Assembly (NCBI GenBank): GCA_029260215.1
Contig: JAJDDQ010000039.1
Location: 174,313 to 238,312, forward strand
Source: Phycisphaerae bacterium
GTDB lineage: Bacteria > Planctomycetota > Phycisphaerae > UBA1845
Reading direction: 5' to 3'
DNA length: 64,000 nucleotides
In this document: one piece after another, positions 33,941 to 58,544 of the stretch
Position numbering within the stretch: the stretch's first letter is position 1
How the letters are laid out: each line of letters opens with the position of its first letter
The notes under the pieces: model-generated
Told to the model about the DNA's origin: nothing
Seen by the model: only the letters and a program-made list of their open reading frames with translations
The model's database searches: none
Made by a program: the position numbers and the translations under genes

Positions 33941-34368
33941 GTTCGGCACCTCCTGGAAATGAAGTTAAGAAACGGCTGCCAAGCTCAGATCGTACCTGTG
34001 CCCTGCGTCCGATACAACGCGAGAACTTGCGCGGCGAATTCTATTGATCTCATGCCCGAATCGACGAAACGTCATAATGTATCAAATACAACGATTGGGG
34101 CAATCAGGATGATTGGGGCAAATCTACAGGGATGCAACAGGCAGCGACCAGTTTCTCTCTAGTCCGGACCCGAAATCATGCATCTACCCTAGAAAGCTAT
34201 TGAATTGGGGCTGTACGACCGGTAAACTACGGATTCTGAGGTGCCGGTGCGCGGAGGGTGCGAACGCTTCCCATATTCCTCCTCCAAGGATGGACACAAC
34301 GCTGGCTCTTCGGGGTGCCGGGAGAACGACGGAGGTTCTCCTCGAAACGAATGGAGGAAAGGAAAGCC
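33941..34368. promoter_or_regulatory. Divergent control region of two giant surface genes
   Basis: 428 bp without a gene. It contains an 18-bp tandem direct repeat (GATTGGGGCAA at 34093-34103 and 34111-34121), a candidate activator or repressor site. In the leader of the plus-strand gene, GGAGAAC (34321-34327) pairs with GTTCTCC (34335-34341), just ahead of the SD (GGAGGAAAGGAA). No clear -35/-10 pairs were identified. Confidence 0.4.
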
Positions 34369-37300
34369 ATGACTCGCCAAAAGTCGCCGGTCTCGATCAG
34401 TCTTTGCGCGCTCGCTCTGCTAACGTCCAGCCTGTTCGCCGACACGACACCACTCGGGACCAGTTCCGAACCTAGCGTGTTCGACATCATTGCAACCATT
34501 TATACCAACGGTGAAACGGTGACGCGCATCGACGACTTCGTCGACATGGGCGTGGCTGAAGATGAGGGTATGGTGCTCGAGCTTTTGTCGAGCATGACCT
34601 TCAGCGGGCGTACCGATCAGACCTGGACGGATGGAATCGTCATCGTCGATGCCGAAGCGAAATTCGCGGGCAATGGCCAAGAGCTTGGCTGGGAACGCGG
34701 CGGTGTTTACACCGACCTCTTCACGATTTCCGGTTCCGGTTACGGCGCTACGGGCGGCATTAGCGGTCTGAATCTGACCGGAGGTGACTTCCACTGGTAC
34801 GACCGGACTGACGGCGAGGTTTGGTCGTCTGACGTTTCCGACAACGTGGACGGCATGGACCACATGATTACGTTTCGCGTTGAGGGCGGTGCGACGCAGA
34901 GCATGACGTGGTTGATCTGCTTTGAAGACCTTCCCAGTTCGTCAGCCGACAACGATTACAACGATCTCTGCGTACAAATCACCATCGACGAATGTCCCAA
35001 CGATCCCAACAAGATCGACGCGGGCGAGTGTGGTTGTGGAAGTCCCGACACCGACACGGACGGCGACGGCACGGCTGACTGTCTCGACGGCTGCCCCAAC
35101 GACCCCGACAAGACTATTCCCGGGCAGTGCGATTGCGGCACGTCTGACAAGGATCGCGACTCCGACGGAACGGCTGACTGCAACGACGGTTGCCCGAGTG
35201 ACCCCGGCAAGATTGATCCGGGGCAATGCGGATGCGGCACGCCTGATACCGACACAGATTCGGACGGTACGGCGGATTGCGTTGATGGTTGTCCGACCGA
35301 TCCCGGTCGCACGGAACCCGGCGTTTGCGGTTGCAACGGACTGGGCGGCTGCGGCGACGAATCGGCTAACCTCTCCGGGAGCAATAGTTGCTTTGATAGC
35401 TTGCGACCCAAAACGACTTCCGGTGACTCCGCCTCATTCGTAGTGACGGCACGGACGAGCATTGACCCTGGGGCACCAACGGATCCAAATGCGTCAGGCA
35501 GTGTCGGAAAGGTTTACCGGTACAGCAAGGGATTGGGCGTCAAGCATTCCGGCTGTGGCGGCAGCAAGGAGATTTCGGGCGGTGGCGGCAATCAAAACGA
35601 GGAATTGATTGTCACGTTCGACGCTCCGGTTGCGGCTGCGAGCGTTGTCATCGAACTGCGCAAGATCAAATTCAGCGACGATGATCCGGTACTGTTCATT
35701 TCCAGCGATATGTCATCCGGCTACGATTACACGATCCTTGAATCCGAAATTCAGGCGGCGTTCTCAAGCACAGGCACTGACCGCGGAGATGTTGATTTTG
35801 CGCTGCTCACCAGCCTACCTGCCAATCTGTTGATCGACAGCTTCAAGCTCCGTGAAACAGACAGCCACATTACTCTCAACGCCGTGGATATTTCCGTCGA
35901 ATGCGATACGGACGGCGACGGCACGCCGGACTGCCTAGACGGCTGCCCCAACGATCCCAACAAGACGACGCCCGGCCTGTGCGGTTGCGGCGTAGCTGAC
36001 GACGACACGGACAACGACGGGACGCCGGACTGCAACGACGGTTGCCCGAACGACCCCAACAAGACCGGACAGGGCGTGTGCGGTTGCGGTGTCCCCGACA
36101 CGGACACCGACAACGACGGAACGTTTGACTGCAACGACGGCTGCCCGAACGATCCGAATAAGACCGCTCCCGGCTCCTGCGGTTGCGGCGTTGCGGACAC
36201 CGACACGGACAACGACGGCGCGGCGGACTGCATCGACGGCTGCCCGAATGACCCCAACAAGATCGCCCAGGGCGTCTGTGGATGCGGTGTCGCGGACACC
36301 GACACGGACAGCGACGGCACGGCGGACTGTGCAGACGGTTGCCCGAACGACCCCAACAAGACCTCCCCAGGCCAATGCGGTTGCGGTGTTCAGGATACGG
36401 ACACGGACAACGACGGCACGGCTGACTGCGTCGATGCCTGCCCGAACGATCCCAACAAGATCGCCCAGGGCATCTGCGGATGCGGCGTTGACGATGTGGA
36501 CACGGACAACGACGGAACGTTCGACTGTTTCGACGGCTGCCCGCTCGATCCCAACAAGATCGCCGAAGGCCAATGCGGCTGCGGAAACCCGGATACGGAC
36601 ACGGACGGCGACGGCACGGCTGATTGCGTCGATGCCTGCCCGAACGATCCCAACAAGATAAGCCCGGGCGTCTGCGGATGCGGCACGCCGGACGTCGATT
36701 CGGACAACGACGGCACGCTCGATTGCAACGACGGCTGTCCGAACGATCCCAACAAGGTCGCGCCAGGCCAGTGCGGCTGCGGCAACCTCGAAACGGATAC
36801 GGACAGCGACGGCACTGCGGACTGCGTTGACGGCTGCCCGAACGATCCCAACAAGATCGCTCAGGGCGTCTGCGGATGCGGCGTCGCGGATACTGATACC
36901 GACAATGACGGCACGGCGGACTGCGACGACCTCTGCCCGAACGATCCGAACAAGGTCGCCCAAGGCCAATGCGGCTGCGGCAACCCTGACACCGACACGG
37001 ACGGCGACGGCACAGCCGACTGCGCGGACGCCTGTCCGAATGACCCCAACAAGATCGCTCAAGGTGCCTGTGGTTGCGGCGTCGCGGATACCGACACGGA
37101 CAACGACGGCACAGCCGATTGCGACGATCTTTGCCCGAATGATCCGAACAAGGTGACGCAGGGCCAATGCGGCTGCGGCAACCCTGAAACGGACACGGAC
37201 GGCGACGGGACGGCTGATTGCGTGGATGCCTGCCCGAGCGATCCCAACAAGATCGCCCCCGGCGTTTGCGGATGCAACGCTCCGGAAACAGACTCGGACA

Positions 37301-40300
37301 ACGACGGCACGCTCGACTGCGACGATCTCTGTCCGAACGATCCCAACAAAATCGTCCCAGGCCAATGCGGCTGTGGAAACCTCGATACCGATACGGACAA
37401 CGACGGCACGGCTGATTGTGTTGATGGCTGTCCGAACGATCCCAACAAGATCGCCCAGGGTGTCTGCGGTTGCGGCGTGTCGGATGTCGATACGGACAAC
37501 GACGGCACGGCTGACTGCGACGACAACTGCCCGAACGACCCAAACAAAGTCACACAGGGGCAGTGCGGCTGCGGCAATCCCGACACGGACACGGACGGCG
37601 ATGGCACGGCGGACTGTGCCGACGGTTGCCCGAACGATCCCAACAAGCTCGCCCCACGCGTCTGCGGATGCGGCACGCCGGATGCGGACACGGACAACGA
37701 CGGCACGCTCGATTGCAACGACGGTTGCCCGAACGACCCGAACAAGGTCACGCCGGGGCAGTGCGGCTGTGGCAATCCCGACACGGATACCGACAGCGAC
37801 GGTACGGCTGACTGCGTGGACATCTGCCCGAACGATCCCAACAAGATCGTGCCGGGCGTCTGCGGATGCGGCACGCCGGATGTCGATACCGACAACGACG
37901 GCGTGCTCGACTGCAACGACGCCTGTCCAGCCGACCCGAACAAGGTCGCTCCGGGGCAGTGTGGTTGTGGCAATCTCGACACGGACACGGACAGCGACGG
38001 CACGGCGGACTGCGTGGACGGCTGCCCGAACGATCCGAACAAGGTGAATCCGGGCATTTGCGGGTGCGGCACGCCAGATACGGACACGGACAACGACGGG
38101 GCGGCGGACTGCAACGACGGCTGCCCGGCTGACCCCAACAAGACCTCCCCAGGCCAATGCGGGTGCGGCAATCCGGAAACGGACACCGACAACGACGGCA
38201 CGGCGGACTGCATCGACGGCTGCCCGAACGATCCCAACAAGATCGCTCAGGGTGTTTGCGGATGCGGCACGCCCGATGTGGATACGGACAACGACGGTGT
38301 GCTCGATTGCATCGACGGTTGCCCGAACGACCCGAACAAGACCACACCAGGCCAATGCGGCTGCGGCAATCCGGAAACAGACACCGACAACGACGGCACA
38401 GCCGACTGCATCGACGCCTGTCCGATGGACCCCAACAAGATTGCCCAGGGGGTTTGCGGATGCGGCGTGGCGGACACCGACACCGACAACGACGGCACGG
38501 CTGACTGCGACGACGACTGCCCGCTCGATCCCAACAAGACGGGGCCTGGTGTGTGCGGCTGCGGCATGCCGGACATCGATTCGGACAACGACGGCGTGCT
38601 CGACTGCAACGATCAGTGCGTGGGCAAACCGGACGTCGATACCGACGGAGACGGCGTGCTCGACTGTCTTGAAGATTGCCCGCTCGATCCGAACAAGACC
38701 GTAGAGGGCATCTGCGGTTGCGGCGTCTCGGATGTCGATACCGACGGAGACGGAACCGCCGATTGTGTTGACGGCTGCCCGAGCGATCCGAACAAGGTCG
38801 CCCCCGAGCAGTGCGGCTGCGGAAATCCCGAGACGGACACCGACAACGACGGGACGGCGGACTGCATCGACGCGTGCCCGAACGATCCGAACAAGATCAC
38901 CCAGGGCGTCTGCGGATGCGGCGTGGCGGATGTCGATTCTGACAACGACGGAACGCTTGATTGCAACGACAACTGCCCGAGCGATCCGACGAAGATTGAT
39001 CCGGGGCAATGTGGTTGTGGAAATCCCGACACGGATTCGGACGGTGACGGGACGGCTGACTGCGTGGACGGCTGCCCGAGCGATCCGACCAAGACCATGC
39101 CCGGCGTCTGCGGGTGCGGCGTGCCGGATGTCGATTCAGACAACGACGGCACACTCGATTGCAACGACAACTGCCCGAGCGACCCGAACAAGGTCGATCC
39201 CGGCCAATGCGGTTGTGGAAACCCGGATACGGACACGGACAGCGACGGAACGGCTGACTGTCTTGACGGCTGCCCACTCGATCCCAACAAGATCAACCCC
39301 GGCGTCTGCGGATGCGGTATCCCCGATGTCGATACGGACAACGACGGCACGCTCGATTGCAACGACGGCTGCCCGCTCGATCCGAACAAGATCGATCCGG
39401 GGCAGTGCGGTTGCGGAAACCTCGACACGGATACGGACGGTGACGGAACAGCCGATTGCATCGACGGTTGCCCGGCTGACCCCACGAAGATCGATCCGGG
39501 CGTCTGCGGATGCGGTACGCCGGACGTCGATTCCGACAGCGACGGCACGCTCGATTGCGACGATCTCTGCCCGCTCGATCCGACCAAGATCGCGCCGGGG
39601 CAATGCGGATGCGGCAACCCCGATACAGACACGGACGGCGACGGAACAGCCGACTGCGTGGACGGTTGCCCGAACGATCCCAACAAGATCGGCCCGGGCG
39701 TCTGCGGATGTGGTGTGACCGACGTGGACACGGACATGGATGGAACGGCTGACTGCGACGACCTCTGCCCGCTCGATCCCAACAAGATCGCGCCGGGGCA
39801 GTGTGGTTGCGGCAACCTCGAAACGGATACCGACGGCGACGGCACAGCCGATTGCATTGACGGCTGCCCGAGCGATCCCACCAAGATCGCCCCAGGCGCG
39901 TGCGGATGCGGAACGCCGGACGTTGACTCCGACAACGACGGCACGCTGGATTGCGACGATGGTTGCCCAGCCGATCCCAACAAGATCGCGCCGGGGCAGT
40001 GCGGCTGCGGCAATCCCGAAACGGATACCGACAGCGACGGGACGGCTGACTGCGTGGACGGTTGCCCGAACGATCCCACCAAGATCACGCCCGGCGTCTG
40101 CGGATGCGGAACGCGCGATGTCGATACGGACAACGACGGCACGCTGGATTGCGACGATGGTTGCCCGAACGATCCCAACAAGGTCGCACCGGGGCAATGC
40201 GGTTGCGGCAATCCTGATACAGATACCGACAACGACGGCACGGCTGACTGCGTGGACGGTTGCCCGAACGATCCCAACAAGATCGCACCGGGTATCTGCG

Positions 40301-41946
40301 GATGCGGCACGCCCGATGTCGATACGGACAACGACGGGACAGCCGATTGCGACGATCTCTGCCCGAACGATCCCAATAAGATCGCACCGGGGCAGTGCGG
40401 GTGCGGCAATCCTGACACCGACACCGACGGCGACGGCACAGCCGACTGCGTCGATGGCTGCCCGAACGATCCCAACAAGATCGCACAGGGTGTCTGCGGA
40501 TGCGGTACGCCGGATATCGATACCGACAACGACGGCACGCTCGATTGCAACGACGGCTGCCCGAACGATCCCAACAAGATCGCGCCGGGGCAGTGCGGAT
40601 GCGGGAATCTCGAAACGGACACCGACAGCGACGGCACAGCCGATTGCGTGGACGGTTGCCCGAACGATCCCAACAAGATCACGCCCGGCGTCTGCGGATG
40701 CGGCACGCCGGATGTCGATACCGACAACGACGGCACGTTCGACTGCAACGATGGATGCCCGAACGATCCCAACAAGATCGCTCCGGGCCAGTGCGGTTGC
40801 GGGAATCTTGAAACGGACACCGACAGCGACGGCACTGCCGATTGCGTGGACGGTTGCCCGAACGATCCCAACAAGATCGCACCGGGTATCTGCGGATGCG
40901 GCACGCCGGATGTCGATTCGGACAGCGACGGCACTGCCGATTGCGACGACCTCTGCCCGAGCGATCCCAACAAGATCGCTCCGGGGCAGTGCGGCTGCGG
41001 AAACCTTGAAACGGACTCCGACAGTGACGGCACAGCCGATTGCGTGGACGGTTGCCCGAACGACCCCAATAAGGTCAGCCCGGGTGTCTGCGGATGCGGC
41101 ACGCCGGATGTCGATACGGACAGCGACGGCACGCTCGATTGCAACGACGGCTGCCCGAACGATCCCGACAAGGTCAACCCCGGTGATTGCGGGTGCGGCG
41201 TCGCCGATGTTGATTCGGACAGCGACGGGACGGCTGACTGTGTGGATGGCTGCCCGAACGATCCCGACAAGATCAGTCCGGGCGTCTGCGGGTGCGGGAA
41301 TCCTGATACGGACTCCGACAACGACAATGTTGCAGATTGCATCGACGGCTGCCCCAATGACCCCAACAAGGTCAATCCGGGCGTCTGCGGCTGCGGCGTG
41401 GCCGACAGCGATTCCGACGGCGACAACACGCTGGATTGCAACGACAACTGTCCGGGCGATCCGAACAAAACGACGCCCGGAGAGTGCGGTTGCGGCACGC
41501 CGGACGACGACACGGACAACGACGGGTTGGCCGACTGCAACGACGGCTGCCCGAACGACCCCGACAAGTTTGAAGCGGGGCAGTGCGGCTGCGGGAACTC
41601 CGATTTGGATACCGACTCAGACGGCACTGCCGATTGTGTGGACTTGTGCGACCTCAACCCGCTCAAGCTCGCACCGGGCTTCTGCGGGTGCGACTTCCCG
41701 GATCAGGATCTCGACGGTGACGGCATTCCGTCGTGCATCGACCAGTGCAATGTTGATCCGAACAAGGTCATCCCGGGTGCGTGCGGCTGCAACTATATCG
41801 AGATCGATACCGACGGTGATGGCGAGCCGGACTGCATCAACACCATCCCAACGGTCTCGCAGTGGGGTATGATCATCCTGTCGATGCTGTTCGTGGGCGG
41901 GCTGGTAATACAACTCCGCCGCAACCGAACATTGTCGCCGGAGTAA
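34369..41946 (+). CDS. Giant calcium-binding-type repeat protein (2525 aa) with DUF4114-like head and IPTL-CTERM tail
   Basis: Start set at ATG 34369 (AGGAAAGCC before it). Signal peptide residues 1-24. Residues 25-205 resemble a DUF4114-like domain ending DNDYNDLCVQI. Four repeats (34991-35330) precede a second non-repeat beta domain of about 180 aa. From 35905 to about 41840 there are about 60 tandem 33-aa repeats of the form CPNDPNK, then CGCG, then DTDxDGTxDC. This combines a thrombospondin type-3 calcium loop (DxDxDGxxDC) with an extra CGCG. The C-terminus is IPTVSQWGMIILS, a hydrophobic helix, then RRNR: an IPTL-CTERM sorting signal. Expected to be a long, calcium-stiffened surface fibre. 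The repeats are so alike that long false frames open on the antisense strand. Confidence 0.9.
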   Translation: MTRQKSPVSISLCALALLTSSLFADTTPLGTSSEPSVFDIIATIYTNGETVTRIDDFVDMGVAEDEGMVLELLSSMTFSGRTDQTWTDGIVIVDAEAKFAGNGQELGWERGGVYTDLFTISGSGYGATGGISGLNLTGGDFHWYDRTDGEVWSSDVSDNVDGMDHMITFRVEGGATQSMTWLICFEDLPSSSADNDYNDLCVQITIDECPNDPNKIDAGECGCGSPDTDTDGDGTADCLDGCPNDPDKTIPGQCDCGTSDKDRDSDGTADCNDGCPSDPGKIDPGQCGCGTPDTDTDSDGTADCVDGCPTDPGRTEPGVCGCNGLGGCGDESANLSGSNSCFDSLRPKTTSGDSASFVVTARTSIDPGAPTDPNASGSVGKVYRYSKGLGVKHSGCGGSKEISGGGGNQNEELIVTFDAPVAAASVVIELRKIKFSDDDPVLFISSDMSSGYDYTILESEIQAAFSSTGTDRGDVDFALLTSLPANLLIDSFKLRETDSHITLNAVDISVECDTDGDGTPDCLDGCPNDPNKTTPGLCGCGVADDDTDNDGTPDCNDGCPNDPNKTGQGVCGCGVPDTDTDNDGTFDCNDGCPNDPNKTAPGSCGCGVADTDTDNDGAADCIDGCPNDPNKIAQGVCGCGVADTDTDSDGTADCADGCPNDPNKTSPGQCGCGVQDTDTDNDGTADCVDACPNDPNKIAQGICGCGVDDVDTDNDGTFDCFDGCPLDPNKIAEGQCGCGNPDTDTDGDGTADCVDACPNDPNKISPGVCGCGTPDVDSDNDGTLDCNDGCPNDPNKVAPGQCGCGNLETDTDSDGTADCVDGCPNDPNKIAQGVCGCGVADTDTDNDGTADCDDLCPNDPNKVAQGQCGCGNPDTDTDGDGTADCADACPNDPNKIAQGACGCGVADTDTDNDGTADCDDLCPNDPNKVTQGQCGCGNPETDTDGDGTADCVDACPSDPNKIAPGVCGCNAPETDSDNDGTLDCDDLCPNDPNKIVPGQCGCGNLDTDTDNDGTADCVDGCPNDPNKIAQGVCGCGVSDVDTDNDGTADCDDNCPNDPNKVTQGQCGCGNPDTDTDGDGTADCADGCPNDPNKLAPRVCGCGTPDADTDNDGTLDCNDGCPNDPNKVTPGQCGCGNPDTDTDSDGTADCVDICPNDPNKIVPGVCGCGTPDVDTDNDGVLDCNDACPADPNKVAPGQCGCGNLDTDTDSDGTADCVDGCPNDPNKVNPGICGCGTPDTDTDNDGAADCNDGCPADPNKTSPGQCGCGNPETDTDNDGTADCIDGCPNDPNKIAQGVCGCGTPDVDTDNDGVLDCIDGCPNDPNKTTPGQCGCGNPETDTDNDGTADCIDACPMDPNKIAQGVCGCGVADTDTDNDGTADCDDDCPLDPNKTGPGVCGCGMPDIDSDNDGVLDCNDQCVGKPDVDTDGDGVLDCLEDCPLDPNKTVEGICGCGVSDVDTDGDGTADCVDGCPSDPNKVAPEQCGCGNPETDTDNDGTADCIDACPNDPNKITQGVCGCGVADVDSDNDGTLDCNDNCPSDPTKIDPGQCGCGNPDTDSDGDGTADCVDGCPSDPTKTMPGVCGCGVPDVDSDNDGTLDCNDNCPSDPNKVDPGQCGCGNPDTDTDSDGTADCLDGCPLDPNKINPGVCGCGIPDVDTDNDGTLDCNDGCPLDPNKIDPGQCGCGNLDTDTDGDGTADCIDGCPADPTKIDPGVCGCGTPDVDSDSDGTLDCDDLCPLDPTKIAPGQCGCGNPDTDTDGDGTADCVDGCPNDPNKIGPGVCGCGVTDVDTDMDGTADCDDLCPLDPNKIAPGQCGCGNLETDTDGDGTADCIDGCPSDPTKIAPGACGCGTPDVDSDNDGTLDCDDGCPADPNKIAPGQCGCGNPETDTDSDGTADCVDGCPNDPTKITPGVCGCGTRDVDTDNDGTLDCDDGCPNDPNKVAPGQCGCGNPDTDTDNDGTADCVDGCPNDPNKIAPGICGCGTPDVDTDNDGTADCDDLCPNDPNKIAPGQCGCGNPDTDTDGDGTADCVDGCPNDPNKIAQGVCGCGTPDIDTDNDGTLDCNDGCPNDPNKIAPGQCGCGNLETDTDSDGTADCVDGCPNDPNKITPGVCGCGTPDVDTDNDGTFDCNDGCPNDPNKIAPGQCGCGNLETDTDSDGTADCVDGCPNDPNKIAPGICGCGTPDVDSDSDGTADCDDLCPSDPNKIAPGQCGCGNLETDSDSDGTADCVDGCPNDPNKVSPGVCGCGTPDVDTDSDGTLDCNDGCPNDPDKVNPGDCGCGVADVDSDSDGTADCVDGCPNDPDKISPGVCGCGNPDTDSDNDNVADCIDGCPNDPNKVNPGVCGCGVADSDSDGDNTLDCNDNCPGDPNKTTPGECGCGTPDDDTDNDGLADCNDGCPNDPDKFEAGQCGCGNSDLDTDSDGTADCVDLCDLNPLKLAPGFCGCDFPDQDLDGDGIPSCIDQCNVDPNKVIPGACGCNYIEIDTDGDGEPDCINTIPTVSQWGMIILSMLFVGGLVIQLRRNRTLSPE
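35905..41840 (+). repeat. Tandem array, 99-bp unit with 198-bp higher-order period
   Basis: About 60 copies of a 99-bp (33-codon) unit. Adjacent units tend to alternate between a form with QCGCGNP and ADCVDG and a form with VCGCGTP and LDCNDG, giving a 198-bp higher-order repeat. Two units near 38620-38760 are diverged (CVGKPDVD, lacking the CGCG part), which breaks the register. Confidence 0.9.
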
Positions 41947-41970
41947 CGTCACGAAACTGACGCCAATTCA

Positions 41971-42014
41971 CGAATCGGGCGGCGCACCTCGCGTTTGCCC
42001 GATTCGTTCGTTTC
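41971..42014 (+). terminator. Terminator of giant repeat gene
   Basis: CGAATCGGGC (41971-41980) pairs perfectly with GCCCGATTCG (41997-42006), followed by TTCGTTTC. Confidence 0.6.
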
Positions 42015-42049
42015 GGGGTGCTCCGCCCCACCTTTCCTGTATGAAATCG

Positions 42050-42181
42050 GGGTGCATCCCATTCTGGGTGGCACGGTCTGGCGCAGCCAGACCGTGGATA
42101 TCCGCAACCCCCACGGCCTACCGACTGCGCCGGTAGATGCCACCCTTCATCACGAATCGCCACCCGTTTTGGGATGCACCC
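42050..42181 (+). mobile_element. MITE-like element, copy 1 (132 bp)
   Basis: The ends are perfect 12-bp terminal inverted repeats, GGGTGCATCCCA and TGGGATGCACCC. Inside are two hairpins: CACGGTCTGGC-GCA-GCCAGACCGTG (42072-42096) and CTACCG/CGGTAG (42118-42136). Flanks ATGAAATCG (42041-42049) and ATGGAATCG (42182-42190) look like a 9-bp target duplication with one change. It shares most of its length with the element at 57670-57804 in reverse orientation. It carries no coding capacity. Confidence 0.85.
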
Positions 42182-42256
42182 ATGGAATCGTCGTCATGGA
42201 AGACTGCATGGACAGGTTGGCGAAGCCGATATAGAGTCCGCAAGGAGGATCACACT

Positions 42257-42979
42257 ATGAATTTACGACAGACTCAGTTGGCTGGGGCACAGGTCATCCC
42301 AGGTTCGGTATGGTCGCTGGGCGAGGACACACGCGCCGACTTCATCACCAAGACCTATGCGCACCTCTTCGGAGCCATCGCTCTCTTTACCCTCATCGAG
42401 GTGTTCCTGTTTTCAAGTGGGTTGGCCGAAAGCATCGCGCACGCGCTGATGGCCGCCCCGGGCGGCTGGCTGATGGTTCTCGGCGGATTCATGCTGGTCA
42501 ATTGGATCGCCAGCCGCACCGCACACACCGCGACGTCGCTGGCTGCGCAATACGCAGCTTTGGGCGGATTCGTCCTGGCGGAGGCCATCATCTTCGTGCC
42601 GATGCTGTACATCGCAAACGAGCAGTTCTCGGGCGTGATTTCCAGCGCCGCGATTGTGACGCTTGGCGGATTCACCGCGTTGACAGCCGTCGCCTTCATC
42701 ACACGAAAAGATTTCTCCTTCATGCGCAGCGTTCTCATCTGGGGCGGCATGTGTGCGATGCTCCTGATCGTGGCCGGCGTGATTTTCGGCTTTTCACTGG
42801 GACCGGTGTTCTCCGTAGCCATGATCGCATTCGCGGGCGGTGCGATTCTCTACGACACGTCCAACGTGCTGCATCACTACCCGCCGGGCAAGCACGTGGC
42901 TGCCTCGCTGGAGTTGTTCGCCTCAGTCGCACTGTTGTTCTGGTACGTGTTGCGCATCTTCATGTCGTCGCGCGATTGA
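42257..42979 (+). CDS. Bax inhibitor-1/YccA family membrane protein
   Basis: 240 aa. ATG 42257 follows AAGGAGG by 8 nt; the longer upstream frame reads through the MITE and is not used. Six to seven transmembrane helices fill residues 35-235. The pattern TKTYAHLFGAIALFTLIEV at the first helix and YDTSNVLHHYPPG before the last one is typical of the UPF0005/BI-1 family, including the conserved Asp that forms the pH-sensing pair in bacterial BI-1 proteins. These proteins are calcium-leak or stress-related membrane proteins, and YccA inhibits FtsH in E. coli. That link is suggestive given the three HflK/HflC-type genes nearby. Monocistronic, ended by its own terminator. Confidence 0.9.
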   Translation: MNLRQTQLAGAQVIPGSVWSLGEDTRADFITKTYAHLFGAIALFTLIEVFLFSSGLAESIAHALMAAPGGWLMVLGGFMLVNWIASRTAHTATSLAAQYAALGGFVLAEAIIFVPMLYIANEQFSGVISSAAIVTLGGFTALTAVAFITRKDFSFMRSVLIWGGMCAMLLIVAGVIFGFSLGPVFSVAMIAFAGGAILYDTSNVLHHYPPGKHVAASLELFASVALLFWYVLRIFMSSRD

Positions 42980-57635: not shown

Positions 57636-58544
57636 ATGGAAAGTCGTACGCAACACACTCGCTCCACCGAGAGGCGTCCCCAAACGGGTGGCAATTCGCA
57701 GCGCGGGGTGCCACGGTCTACCGGCGCAGTCGGTAGGCCGTGGGAACTGCGAAACGCCACGGCCTGGCTGCGCCAGACCGTGCCACCCAGAATGGAATAC
57801 GCTCGCTCCACCGGTTTCGTCGTCTTGATGGCGGCGCTCTGCCTCACCAGCTGCGTCCAACGCGCGACAGCCGAGAACGATCACGATCGCGACAGAATAA
57901 GGGCCGTCCGCCTGTTGCAGGAGTCGGTCATCAAAGAACTGACGCTCGACGAAGAAACAGCCGGCGAGTTGAACGCGCTTTTCGATGAGCATTACGAAAA
58001 CATCAAGTCGATCGTTCGCGAAACGGAGCGGCTGCACAACGAGAACCGGGCCATGGTACGCAAGCTGCGCGAAGAAATCGAAACCGCCAAAAAAGCCCGC
58101 GATTTCCCCGAGGTTCGCGAAATTCGCAAACGGTTGCGCGAACTCGACACGGGGAGACTGGCCCTGCGACAGGTCAACATGGCATTCGACGTCAAAGCTC
58201 TGAAACTCCTGACAGGCGAACAGGGACGCACCTTCAGAAAACTCGCCGCCCGACATCGAAACTCGGCTGACGCACGGGCCAATCCGTACGCCGGCATCGC
58301 AGCCATTCACCGCAGGCTCAAACGCCTTAGCATTTCCGATGAGCAAACCAAAGAAGTCCGGGAACGCATGAGCACGCTCGCCACAGAGTTGGCCAAAGCG
58401 CAGCAGGACGCCGAAAAACGCGAGCAACTGTCCAGCGATTTCCGAGAATTCGTCCTTGGTGTTCTGACCGAAGAGCAGAAGGAAAGGTTTCTTGCACTGG
58501 AACGGGCATCCACGGACTCAGGCCGCCGGGATCACAAACGGTAG
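57636..58544 (+). CDS. Spy/CpxP-like coiled-coil periplasmic protein with MITE-derived N-terminal insertion
   Basis: 302 aa as read from ATG 57636 (GGGAG 9 nt upstream). Without the MITE the protein would begin MESRTQHTRSTGFVVLMAAL and run straight into a lipobox-like LCLTSC. The element inserts 48 codons in frame after RST, and brings its own ATG at 57792, from which a normal signal peptide (MEYARSTGFVVLMAAL) also follows. The mature part is almost wholly helical with charged heptads (residues about 80-290) and the repeating LT(D/E)EQ-type motifs of Spy/CpxP chaperones (LTLDEETAGEL, LTGEQGRTF, ISDEQTKEV, LTEEQKERF). Likely an envelope stress chaperone. Confidence 0.78.
   Translation: MESRTQHTRSTERRPQTGGNSQRGVPRSTGAVGRPWELRNATAWLRQTVPPRMEYARSTGFVVLMAALCLTSCVQRATAENDHDRDRIRAVRLLQESVIKELTLDEETAGELNALFDEHYENIKSIVRETERLHNENRAMVRKLREEIETAKKARDFPEVREIRKRLRELDTGRLALRQVNMAFDVKALKLLTGEQGRTFRKLAARHRNSADARANPYAGIAAIHRRLKRLSISDEQTKEVRERMSTLATELAKAQQDAEKREQLSSDFREFVLGVLTEEQKERFLALERASTDSGRRDHKR
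57670..57804 (-). mobile_element. MITE-like element, copy 2, inside a gene
   Basis: 135 bp, flanked by GCTCCACCG at 57661-57669 and 57805-57813 (a 9-bp target duplication; the identity extends to 12 bp, CTCGCTCCACCG). Read on the minus strand it matches copy 1 over its whole length with about 80 percent identity by eye. Internal hairpins are CCACGG-t-CTACCG with CGGTAG-g-CCGTGG, and CACGGcCTGGC with GCCAGaCCGTG. The ends are less perfect than in copy 1 (AGAGGCG and CGCTC). Confidence 0.85.

What the first reader, a model, noticed from the sequence alone, without database searches (positions are those of the whole stretch)
42050..42190. A 132-135-bp MITE family with hairpins and 9-bp target duplication
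Copy 1 has perfect 12-bp terminal inverted repeats, two internal hairpins and flanking near-identical 9-mers. A second copy at 57670-57804 (reverse orientation) matches it along its full length. The pair shows a mobile, non-autonomous element. A 9-bp duplication fits several IS families, but no transposase with matching ends is in the window. The two IS relics here (IS3-like, IS21-like) are not obviously related.
Basis: seen in the sequence. Interest (0 to 1): 0.72.

Follow-up and report, generated by a model that had tools for sequence, protein, structure and literature searches.

The report
ISKra4-type MITE carrying paired DNA hairpins
A short, dispersed jumping DNA of about 135 bases, present in dozens of copies in this planctomycete genome, has the ends and the 9-base target duplication of the ISKra4 family of jumping genes and carries a hairpin pair that also spreads without those ends and serves as landing site for another mobile element.

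Summary
Copy 1 (42050-42181, 132 bp) and copy 2 (57670-57804, reverse, 135 bp) belong to a family of at least 40 dispersed copies in this genome. Among 31 full-length copies the flanks match at an offset of exactly 9 bp (67% of positions, against 21-34% at every other offset; permutation p <= 5e-5), so 9-bp target duplication is established. The likely source of mobility is the ISKra4 family (Mutator-like DDE transposases): in related genomes ISKra4 elements have the same 23-bp ends (left to left 22/23, right to right 21/23) and 9-bp duplications. The window's own genome has no ISKra4 transposase, so the family looks orphaned there. The interior is a pair of inverted hairpin units (GGGTGGCACGGTCT...AGGCCGTGG) that also occur without ISKra4 ends across the class, whose stems vary by compensatory changes, and which are better conserved than the element's ends. 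They resemble REP doublets, but no REP transposase (RAYT) was found beside them. An IS1111-type IS110 element inserts at the hairpin foot. The net insertion is 144 bp (48 codons); copy 2 lies in frame in a lipoprotein-like signal peptide, another copy in frame inside an MnmE-like GTPase gene.

The parts
42050..42181 (+). MITE copy 1 (132 bp)
42041..42049 (.). left 9-bp target duplication of copy 1, ATGAAATCG
42182..42190 (.). right 9-bp target duplication of copy 1, ATGGAATCG (8/9)
42050..42072 (+). left ISKra4-type end GGGTGCATCCCATTCTGGGTGGC; 22/23 identical to the left end of the G002 ISKra4 element
42159..42181 (-). right ISKra4-type end; 21/23 identical to the right ends of the G002 and G031 ISKra4 elements
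42066..42145 (+). core: two inverted hairpin units (REP-doublet-like) between GGGTGGCA and TGCCACCC
42073..42095 (+). hairpin 1, ACGGTCTGGCGCAGCCAGACCGT
42118..42136 (+). hairpin 2, CTACCGACTGCGCCGGTAG
57670..57804 (-). MITE copy 2 (135 bp, reverse)
57661..57669 (.). 9-bp target duplication of copy 2, GCTCCACCG
57805..57813 (.). 9-bp target duplication of copy 2, GCTCCACCG (perfect)
57706..57788 (-). double-hairpin core of copy 2
57636..58544 (+). open frame of 302 aa that runs in frame through copy 2; without element and one duplication it reads MESRTQHTRSTGFVVLMAALCLTSC, a lipoprotein-type signal peptide
42257..42979 (+). neighbour gene downstream of copy 1, Bax1-I (BI-1) family; likely start 42257, 75 bp beyond the element

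Best explanation
This is a MITE family moved in trans by an ISKra4-family (p-MULT 4, Mutator-like DDE) transposase. Shown here: dispersed copies with 23-bp imperfect terminal inverted repeats, an exact 9-bp target duplication, and handed ends that match the left and right ends of ISKra4 elements in related Phycisphaerae. Inferred: the transposase binds both ends, cuts and inserts the element into a target with a 9-bp stagger; the enzyme has since been lost from (or was not binned with) this genome, so copies now mostly decay. Between the ends lies a doublet of inverted hairpin units that also occur without ISKra4 ends. The best reading is that this doublet was captured as cargo, joined at the GGGTGGC motif that the ISKra4 left end and the hairpin foot share. 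The hairpins are probably kept by a constraint of their own on structure, and they act as the docking site of an IS1111-type IS110 element.
For: At least 40 copies in the genome. Flank match at 9 bp is 0.667 against 0.21-0.34 at offsets 4-8 and 10-14, with 7 perfect duplications and permutation p <= 5e-5. ISKra4 transposases (NF033572) occur in 18 of 60 relatives and 0 times in the own genome. Matching ends: G031 right end next to the transposase stop; G016 both ends; G011 a complete 1,533-bp IS with perfect 9-bp duplication CGATCTTCG. G002 has five contig ends with an ISKra4 C-terminus (77-78% identity over 22-23 aa) followed by the MITE's right end, and two paired contig ends give 9-bp duplications ATCCATCAT and ATTCTACGA. 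Identity is left to left 22/23 and right to right 21/23, against 19/23 between the MITE's own ends. MITEs with these ends, other interiors and perfect 9-bp duplications occur in other planctomycete MAGs (10 perfect cases). Published ISKra4 features fit: inverted repeats of 18-39 bp, 8-9-bp duplications, presence in Planctomycetes (PMC3942029).
Against: No ISKra4 transposase in the own genome, so movement in trans is inferred from relatives; the assembly is a 97%-complete set of 88 contigs and could lack an IS contig. The only complete ISKra4 with a visible duplication on both sides of one contig has ends GGGTGCATGAC rather than GGGTGCATCCC. The interior of the closest-ended IS (G002) is not assembled. 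No empty site in a close relative could be shown, since no same-genus genome was among the relatives searched.
Confidence: 0.9

Rival explanations
1. The element is a pure REP/REPIN-type repeat moved by a REP-associated tyrosine transposase (RAYT), and the ISKra4-like ends are incidental.
For: The core is a doublet of inverted hairpins, dispersed as singlets and doublets without ISKra4 ends in other genomes. Stems covary: 19 distinct tips, 18-19 of 19 paired at each of the four stem positions. Y1 transposases are common in these genomes.
Against: An exact 9-bp target duplication and 23-bp terminal repeats are DDE features. No hairpin unit lies near any of 43 stretches around Y1 transposase genes, three of them in this genome. 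No GTAG or CGTC tag at the foot. MITEs with the same ends exist without this core (L246, L247, L249, L251).
Confidence: 0.04
2. The element is mobilised by the IS110/IS1111 element found in the same genome.
For: The IS110 element sits inside copies of the MITE at one fixed place.
Against: IS110/IS1111 elements do not work through terminal repeats with 9-bp target duplication (general knowledge of the family). The junctions show the IS110 inserted into the hairpin foot, between GGGTGGCA and CGGTCT. The same insertion occurs in G298 in a core without ISKra4 ends (L288).
Confidence: 0.02
3. The whole element is an ancient internal-deletion derivative of an ISKra4 IS and the hairpins arose inside it; hairpin units elsewhere are fragments that escaped from it.
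For: The same layout (left end, GGGTGGCA, two hairpins, TGCCACCC, spacer of 10-13 nt, right end) recurs in other genera with different stem sequence (L250, L255, L259, L178).
Against: Free hairpin units occur in other families and orders of the class without ISKra4 ends, and inside a second MITE type with different ends in G005 and in the own genome. The ISKra4 elements seen have no such hairpins at their ends.
Confidence: 0.2

Closest known systems
ISKra4 family (p-MULT 4, Mutator-like DDE transposases; PMC3942029)
   Same: ends begin GGGTGCAT (in the relatives examined here), 23-bp inverted repeats, 9-bp duplications, presence in Planctomycetes
   Different: no transposase in the element or in the own genome; the interior is a hairpin doublet
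MITEAba12 with ISAba12 (PMC6382973)
   Same: 113-bp bacterial MITE with 9-bp target duplications, assigned to an IS by shared ends
   Different: different ends (GGCTTTGTTGCACAAA) and IS; no dispersed hairpin cargo is described in what I read; its parent IS lives in the same genome
REP / REPIN / BIME repeats (PMC3733652, PMC3116915)
   Same: short hairpin units as singlets and inverted doublets; REPs too are hit by insertion sequences
   Different: no GTAG or CGTC tag and no RAYT nearby; here packed between DDE transposon ends with target duplication
Rickettsia palindromic elements (RPE; described in PMC3733652)
   Same: palindromic repeat found in frame inside protein genes
   Different: RPE ends carry CGTC; here the 135-bp element plus 9-bp duplication makes exactly 48 codons, and only a few of the copies examined lie in genes
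IS1111 group of IS110 (seekRNA-guided; PMC11187229)
   Same: the IS found inside MITE copies has a DEDD transposase and subterminal inverted repeats and picks a hairpin target, as ISPa11 does with REPs
   Different: its target is this hairpin unit; the guide RNA was not examined

Membership tests
MITE | short element without transposase gene | tested here: met
   132-137 bp
MITE | terminal inverted repeats | tested here: met
   12 bp perfect, 19/23 over 23 bp
MITE | target duplication of fixed length | tested here: met
   9 bp, permutation p <= 5e-5
MITE | many dispersed copies | tested here: met
   at least 40 in the genome
ISKra4-mobilised element | ends shared with an ISKra4 IS | tested here: met
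   22/23 and 21/23 to G002; G031 and G016 ends
ISKra4-mobilised element | 8-9-bp duplication | tested here: met
   9 bp in the MITE and in ISKra4 of G011 and G002
ISKra4-mobilised element | ISKra4 transposase in the same genome | tested here: not met
   none by profile or by the closest protein; the assembly is incomplete
ISKra4-mobilised element | movement by ISKra4 transposase | not testable with these tools
   needs a transposition assay
REP/REPIN (core only) | hairpin unit in dispersed singlets and inverted doublets | tested here: met
   compensatory stem changes
REP/REPIN (core only) | GTAG or CGTC tag at the foot | tested here: not met
   feet are GGGTGGCA and CCGTGG
REP/REPIN (core only) | RAYT flanked by the units | tested here: not met
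   0 of 43 stretches around Y1 transposase genes; not all Y1 genes were looked at
IS1111 group (nested element) | DEDD transposase and subterminal inverted repeats | tested here: met
   NF033542 and PF01548 match the two halves of a broken frame; CTATGA(A)GCGAG repeats

The most novel reading that the evidence does not exclude
REP-like hairpin doublets in planctomycetes spread by riding as cargo inside MITEs of unrelated DDE transposon families (ISKra4-type, and at least one other end type), rather than by their own tyrosine transposase, and then serve as docking sites for RNA-guided IS1111 elements: a three-layer nest of mobile DNA in which the hairpins, not the transposon ends, are what selection keeps.
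Probability: 0.4. Interest if true: 0.6.

Novelty: new variant of a known kind. Interest (0 to 1): 0.5.

Why it matters
My literature searches found no described MITE of the ISKra4 (bacterial Mutator-like) family. The composite build offers a route by which REP-like hairpins can spread without a REP transposase. Finding the same hairpin core inside two different MITE types, and as the target of an IS1111-type element, makes the question of what keeps such palindromes in genomes testable. The 48-codon net size also shows how a MITE can sit inside a gene without breaking the frame.

Tried and rejected
Rfam: no family near copy 1 above threshold. RAYT link: 43 stretches around Y1 transposase genes scanned, no hairpin unit nearby. 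Homologues of the copy 2 lipoprotein in relatives align only from residue 20 on, so they give no empty site at the signal peptide. IS110 as the mover of the MITE: rejected, it is nested in the MITE. A first transposase comparison used the antisense frame by mistake and was redone. Sigma-70 scan: one promoter-like site begins 28 bp beyond copy 1 (42209-42237), outside the 13-17 bp reported for ISKra4 insertions upstream of promoters, so that preference is not supported by copy 1.

Full report
OBSERVATION. Copy 1 has perfect 12-bp ends, two hairpins and near-identical flanking 9-mers (8/9). Copy 2 turns out to have a perfect 9-bp duplication, GCTCCACCG. A family profile finds only these two copies in the window. 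Folding is far outside dinucleotide-preserving shuffles.

FAMILY IN THE GENOME. A search of the own genome found at least 40 copies, nearly all 79-95% identical to copy 1. End-pattern and profile searches over the fetched loci gave 57 places, in which copies split by another element count as two halves. Most copies are exactly 135 bp; mean pairwise identity is 86% and the maximum 96%. For 31 full-length copies with both flanks, left and right flanks match at 66.7% of positions when 9 bp is assumed and at 21-34% for every other length from 4 to 14. Seven are perfect, and 20,000 permutations of the partners never reached the observed value. The 9-bp target duplication is therefore established.

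WHICH TRANSPOSASE. From memory, ends starting GGG with a 9-bp duplication suggested ISKra4; this was then tested. The ISKra4 profile NF033572 matches 18 of 60 relatives and not the own genome. In G031 the transposase stop is followed at once by GCCACCCTTTTGGGGATGCACCC. In G016 both ends of a 1,513-bp element read GGGTGCATCCC, the second at a contig end. In G011 a complete 1,533-bp element with ends GGGTGCATGAC has the perfect duplication CGATCTTCG. In G002 five contig ends carry an ISKra4 C-terminus (77-78% identical to G016 over 22-23 residues) plus the right end, and others carry the left end. Two pairs of such contig ends share 9-mers, ATCCATCAT and ATTCTACGA, which I read as the two sides of single insertions. 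The MITE's left end matches the G002 left end at 22/23 and its right end the G002 right end at 21/23, while the MITE's own two ends match at 19/23. The ends are thus handed as in the IS. Published features of the family agree: inverted repeats of 18-39 bp, duplications of 8 or 9 bp, occurrence in Planctomycetes (PMC3942029). A second search with the closest transposase again found none in the own genome, so the MITE family appears orphaned there, with the caveat of an 88-contig assembly.

OTHER GENOMES. The pattern GGGTGCATCCCANNNNGGGTGGCA occurs at 41 places in 84,980 species genomes, in MAGs titled Phycisphaerae, Phycisphaerales or Planctomycetota, and in one titled only 'bacterium' (Gpa_12). 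Many of these places are MITEs of 122-472 bp with 9-bp duplications, ten of them perfect. Some have no hairpin core of the present kind (L246, L247, L249, L251). Others have the same layout with different stems, such as GGGCAAACTTGTTTGCCC in Gpa_12.

THE CORE. The interior (42066-42145) is a doublet of inverted units of the form GGGTGGCACGGTCT-tip-AGGCCGTGG. With up to two mismatches this unit occurs 71 times in the own genome and in 12 of 397 genomes of the class. In G298, G292, G244, G238, G398, G051, G053 and G027 the units seen stand without ISKra4 ends. In G005 and at six places of the own genome, doublets lie between other ends (CTAGTGCTTTGTCA in G005; TCGATTGATGAGTC-like in G000), read by eye. 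Tips vary by compensatory change: among 19 distinct 11-nt tips the four stem positions pair in 18-19 of 19, with T-A/A-T, G-C/C-G/A-T/T-A and G-C/C-G/A-T types. Within the MITE family the hairpins diverge by 3-4% from the consensus, the ends by 8-9% and the spacers by 15-19%, which suggests that structure is kept or homogenised after insertion; part of this could be a bias of the search that found the copies. The units look like REP doublets, but lack a GTAG or CGTC tag, and no unit lay near any of 43 stretches around Y1 transposase genes. I therefore say that they resemble REPs and do not file them as RAYT-type REPs.

A NESTED ELEMENT. In the own genome an IS110-family element of IS1111 type (DEDD transposase, subterminal repeats CTATGA(A)GCGAG) sits inside the MITE, between GGGTGGCA and CGGTCT; nine right-end junctions are seen. 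The one complete copy read (C14) has its transposase frame broken. The same IS end lies at the same place in a free core of G298 (L288). IS1111 elements are known to choose REP or attC hairpins through a guide RNA (PMC11187229).

POSITION AND EFFECT ON GENES. 135 + 9 = 144 bp = 48 codons, and four of six frames of a typical copy are open. Copies avoid long frames: 18 of 31 empty sites fall in any ORF of 150 aa or more, against 82% of random positions. Copy 2 sits in frame in the first residues of a lipoprotein-like frame; with element and one duplication removed it reads MESRTQHTRSTGFVVLMAALCLTSC. A copy at C35:11476 lies in frame in an MnmE-like GTPase. Joining the flanks raises the TrmE_N score from 40.1 to 46.1 bits and extends the match from profile positions 2-66 to 2-97, so the gene preceded the insertion; a second, better match to TrmE_N lies elsewhere in the genome (C78). 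A copy at C63:81075 splits an ATPase-like frame in frame, without Pfam support. Copy 1 lies 75 bp upstream of a Bax1-I family gene.

MECHANISM. Shown: family, ends, duplication, kinship of ends, core as a separate unit, nested IS. Inferred: movement in trans by ISKra4 transposase; capture of the hairpin doublet through the GGGTGGC motif shared by the ISKra4 left end and the hairpin foot; present inactivity in this genome. Not shown: any movement in the laboratory, or any role of the hairpins.

Noticed in passing
L139 / L127 (G000:C14:31872-33570) and contig ends C4, C19, C41, C45, C47, C55, C61: IS1111-type IS110 element inserted at GGGTGGCA|CGGTCT inside MITE hairpins; it probably explains why many contigs break there. 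The transposase frame of the complete C14 copy is broken.
   Followed up: partly
L015 (G000:C35:11476-11606): MITE copy in frame inside an MnmE-like GTPase gene, splitting the TrmE_N domain; a better TrmE_N match is on C78.
   Followed up: partly
L020 (G000:C63:81075-81206): MITE copy in frame between the P-loop part and the rest of a MinD/FlhG-like ATPase frame (by eye; no Pfam match).
   Followed up: partly
L022 (G000:C25:96894-97026): MITE inserted so that the target duplication contains the ATG start codon of a protein that looks like topoisomerase VI subunit B (by eye).
   Followed up: no
L322, L323, L324, L325, L158, L141 (G000); L042, L032 (G005): The same hairpin doublets inside a second MITE-like type with other ends (TCGATTGATGAGTC-like in G000; CTAGTGCTTTGTCA in G005); transposon family not tested.
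   Followed up: partly
L250-L281 (MAG Gpa_12, JAAEQG): 124-bp MITEs with ISKra4-type ends and hairpins of another sequence (GGGCAAACTTGTTTGCCC) in the same layout.
   Followed up: partly
L361, L372 (G216): Multi-copy ISKra4 element at contig ends with ends GGGTGCATCTC.
   Followed up: no
window 34258-41946: Frame of 2,562 aa with a 99-bp (33-residue) repeat in about 60 in-register copies, ending just upstream of copy 1.
   Followed up: no
window 41970-42010: Inverted repeat ACGAATCGGGC...GCCCGATTCGT just after the stop of the large repeat gene, terminator-like to the eye; the scan did not report it.
   Followed up: no
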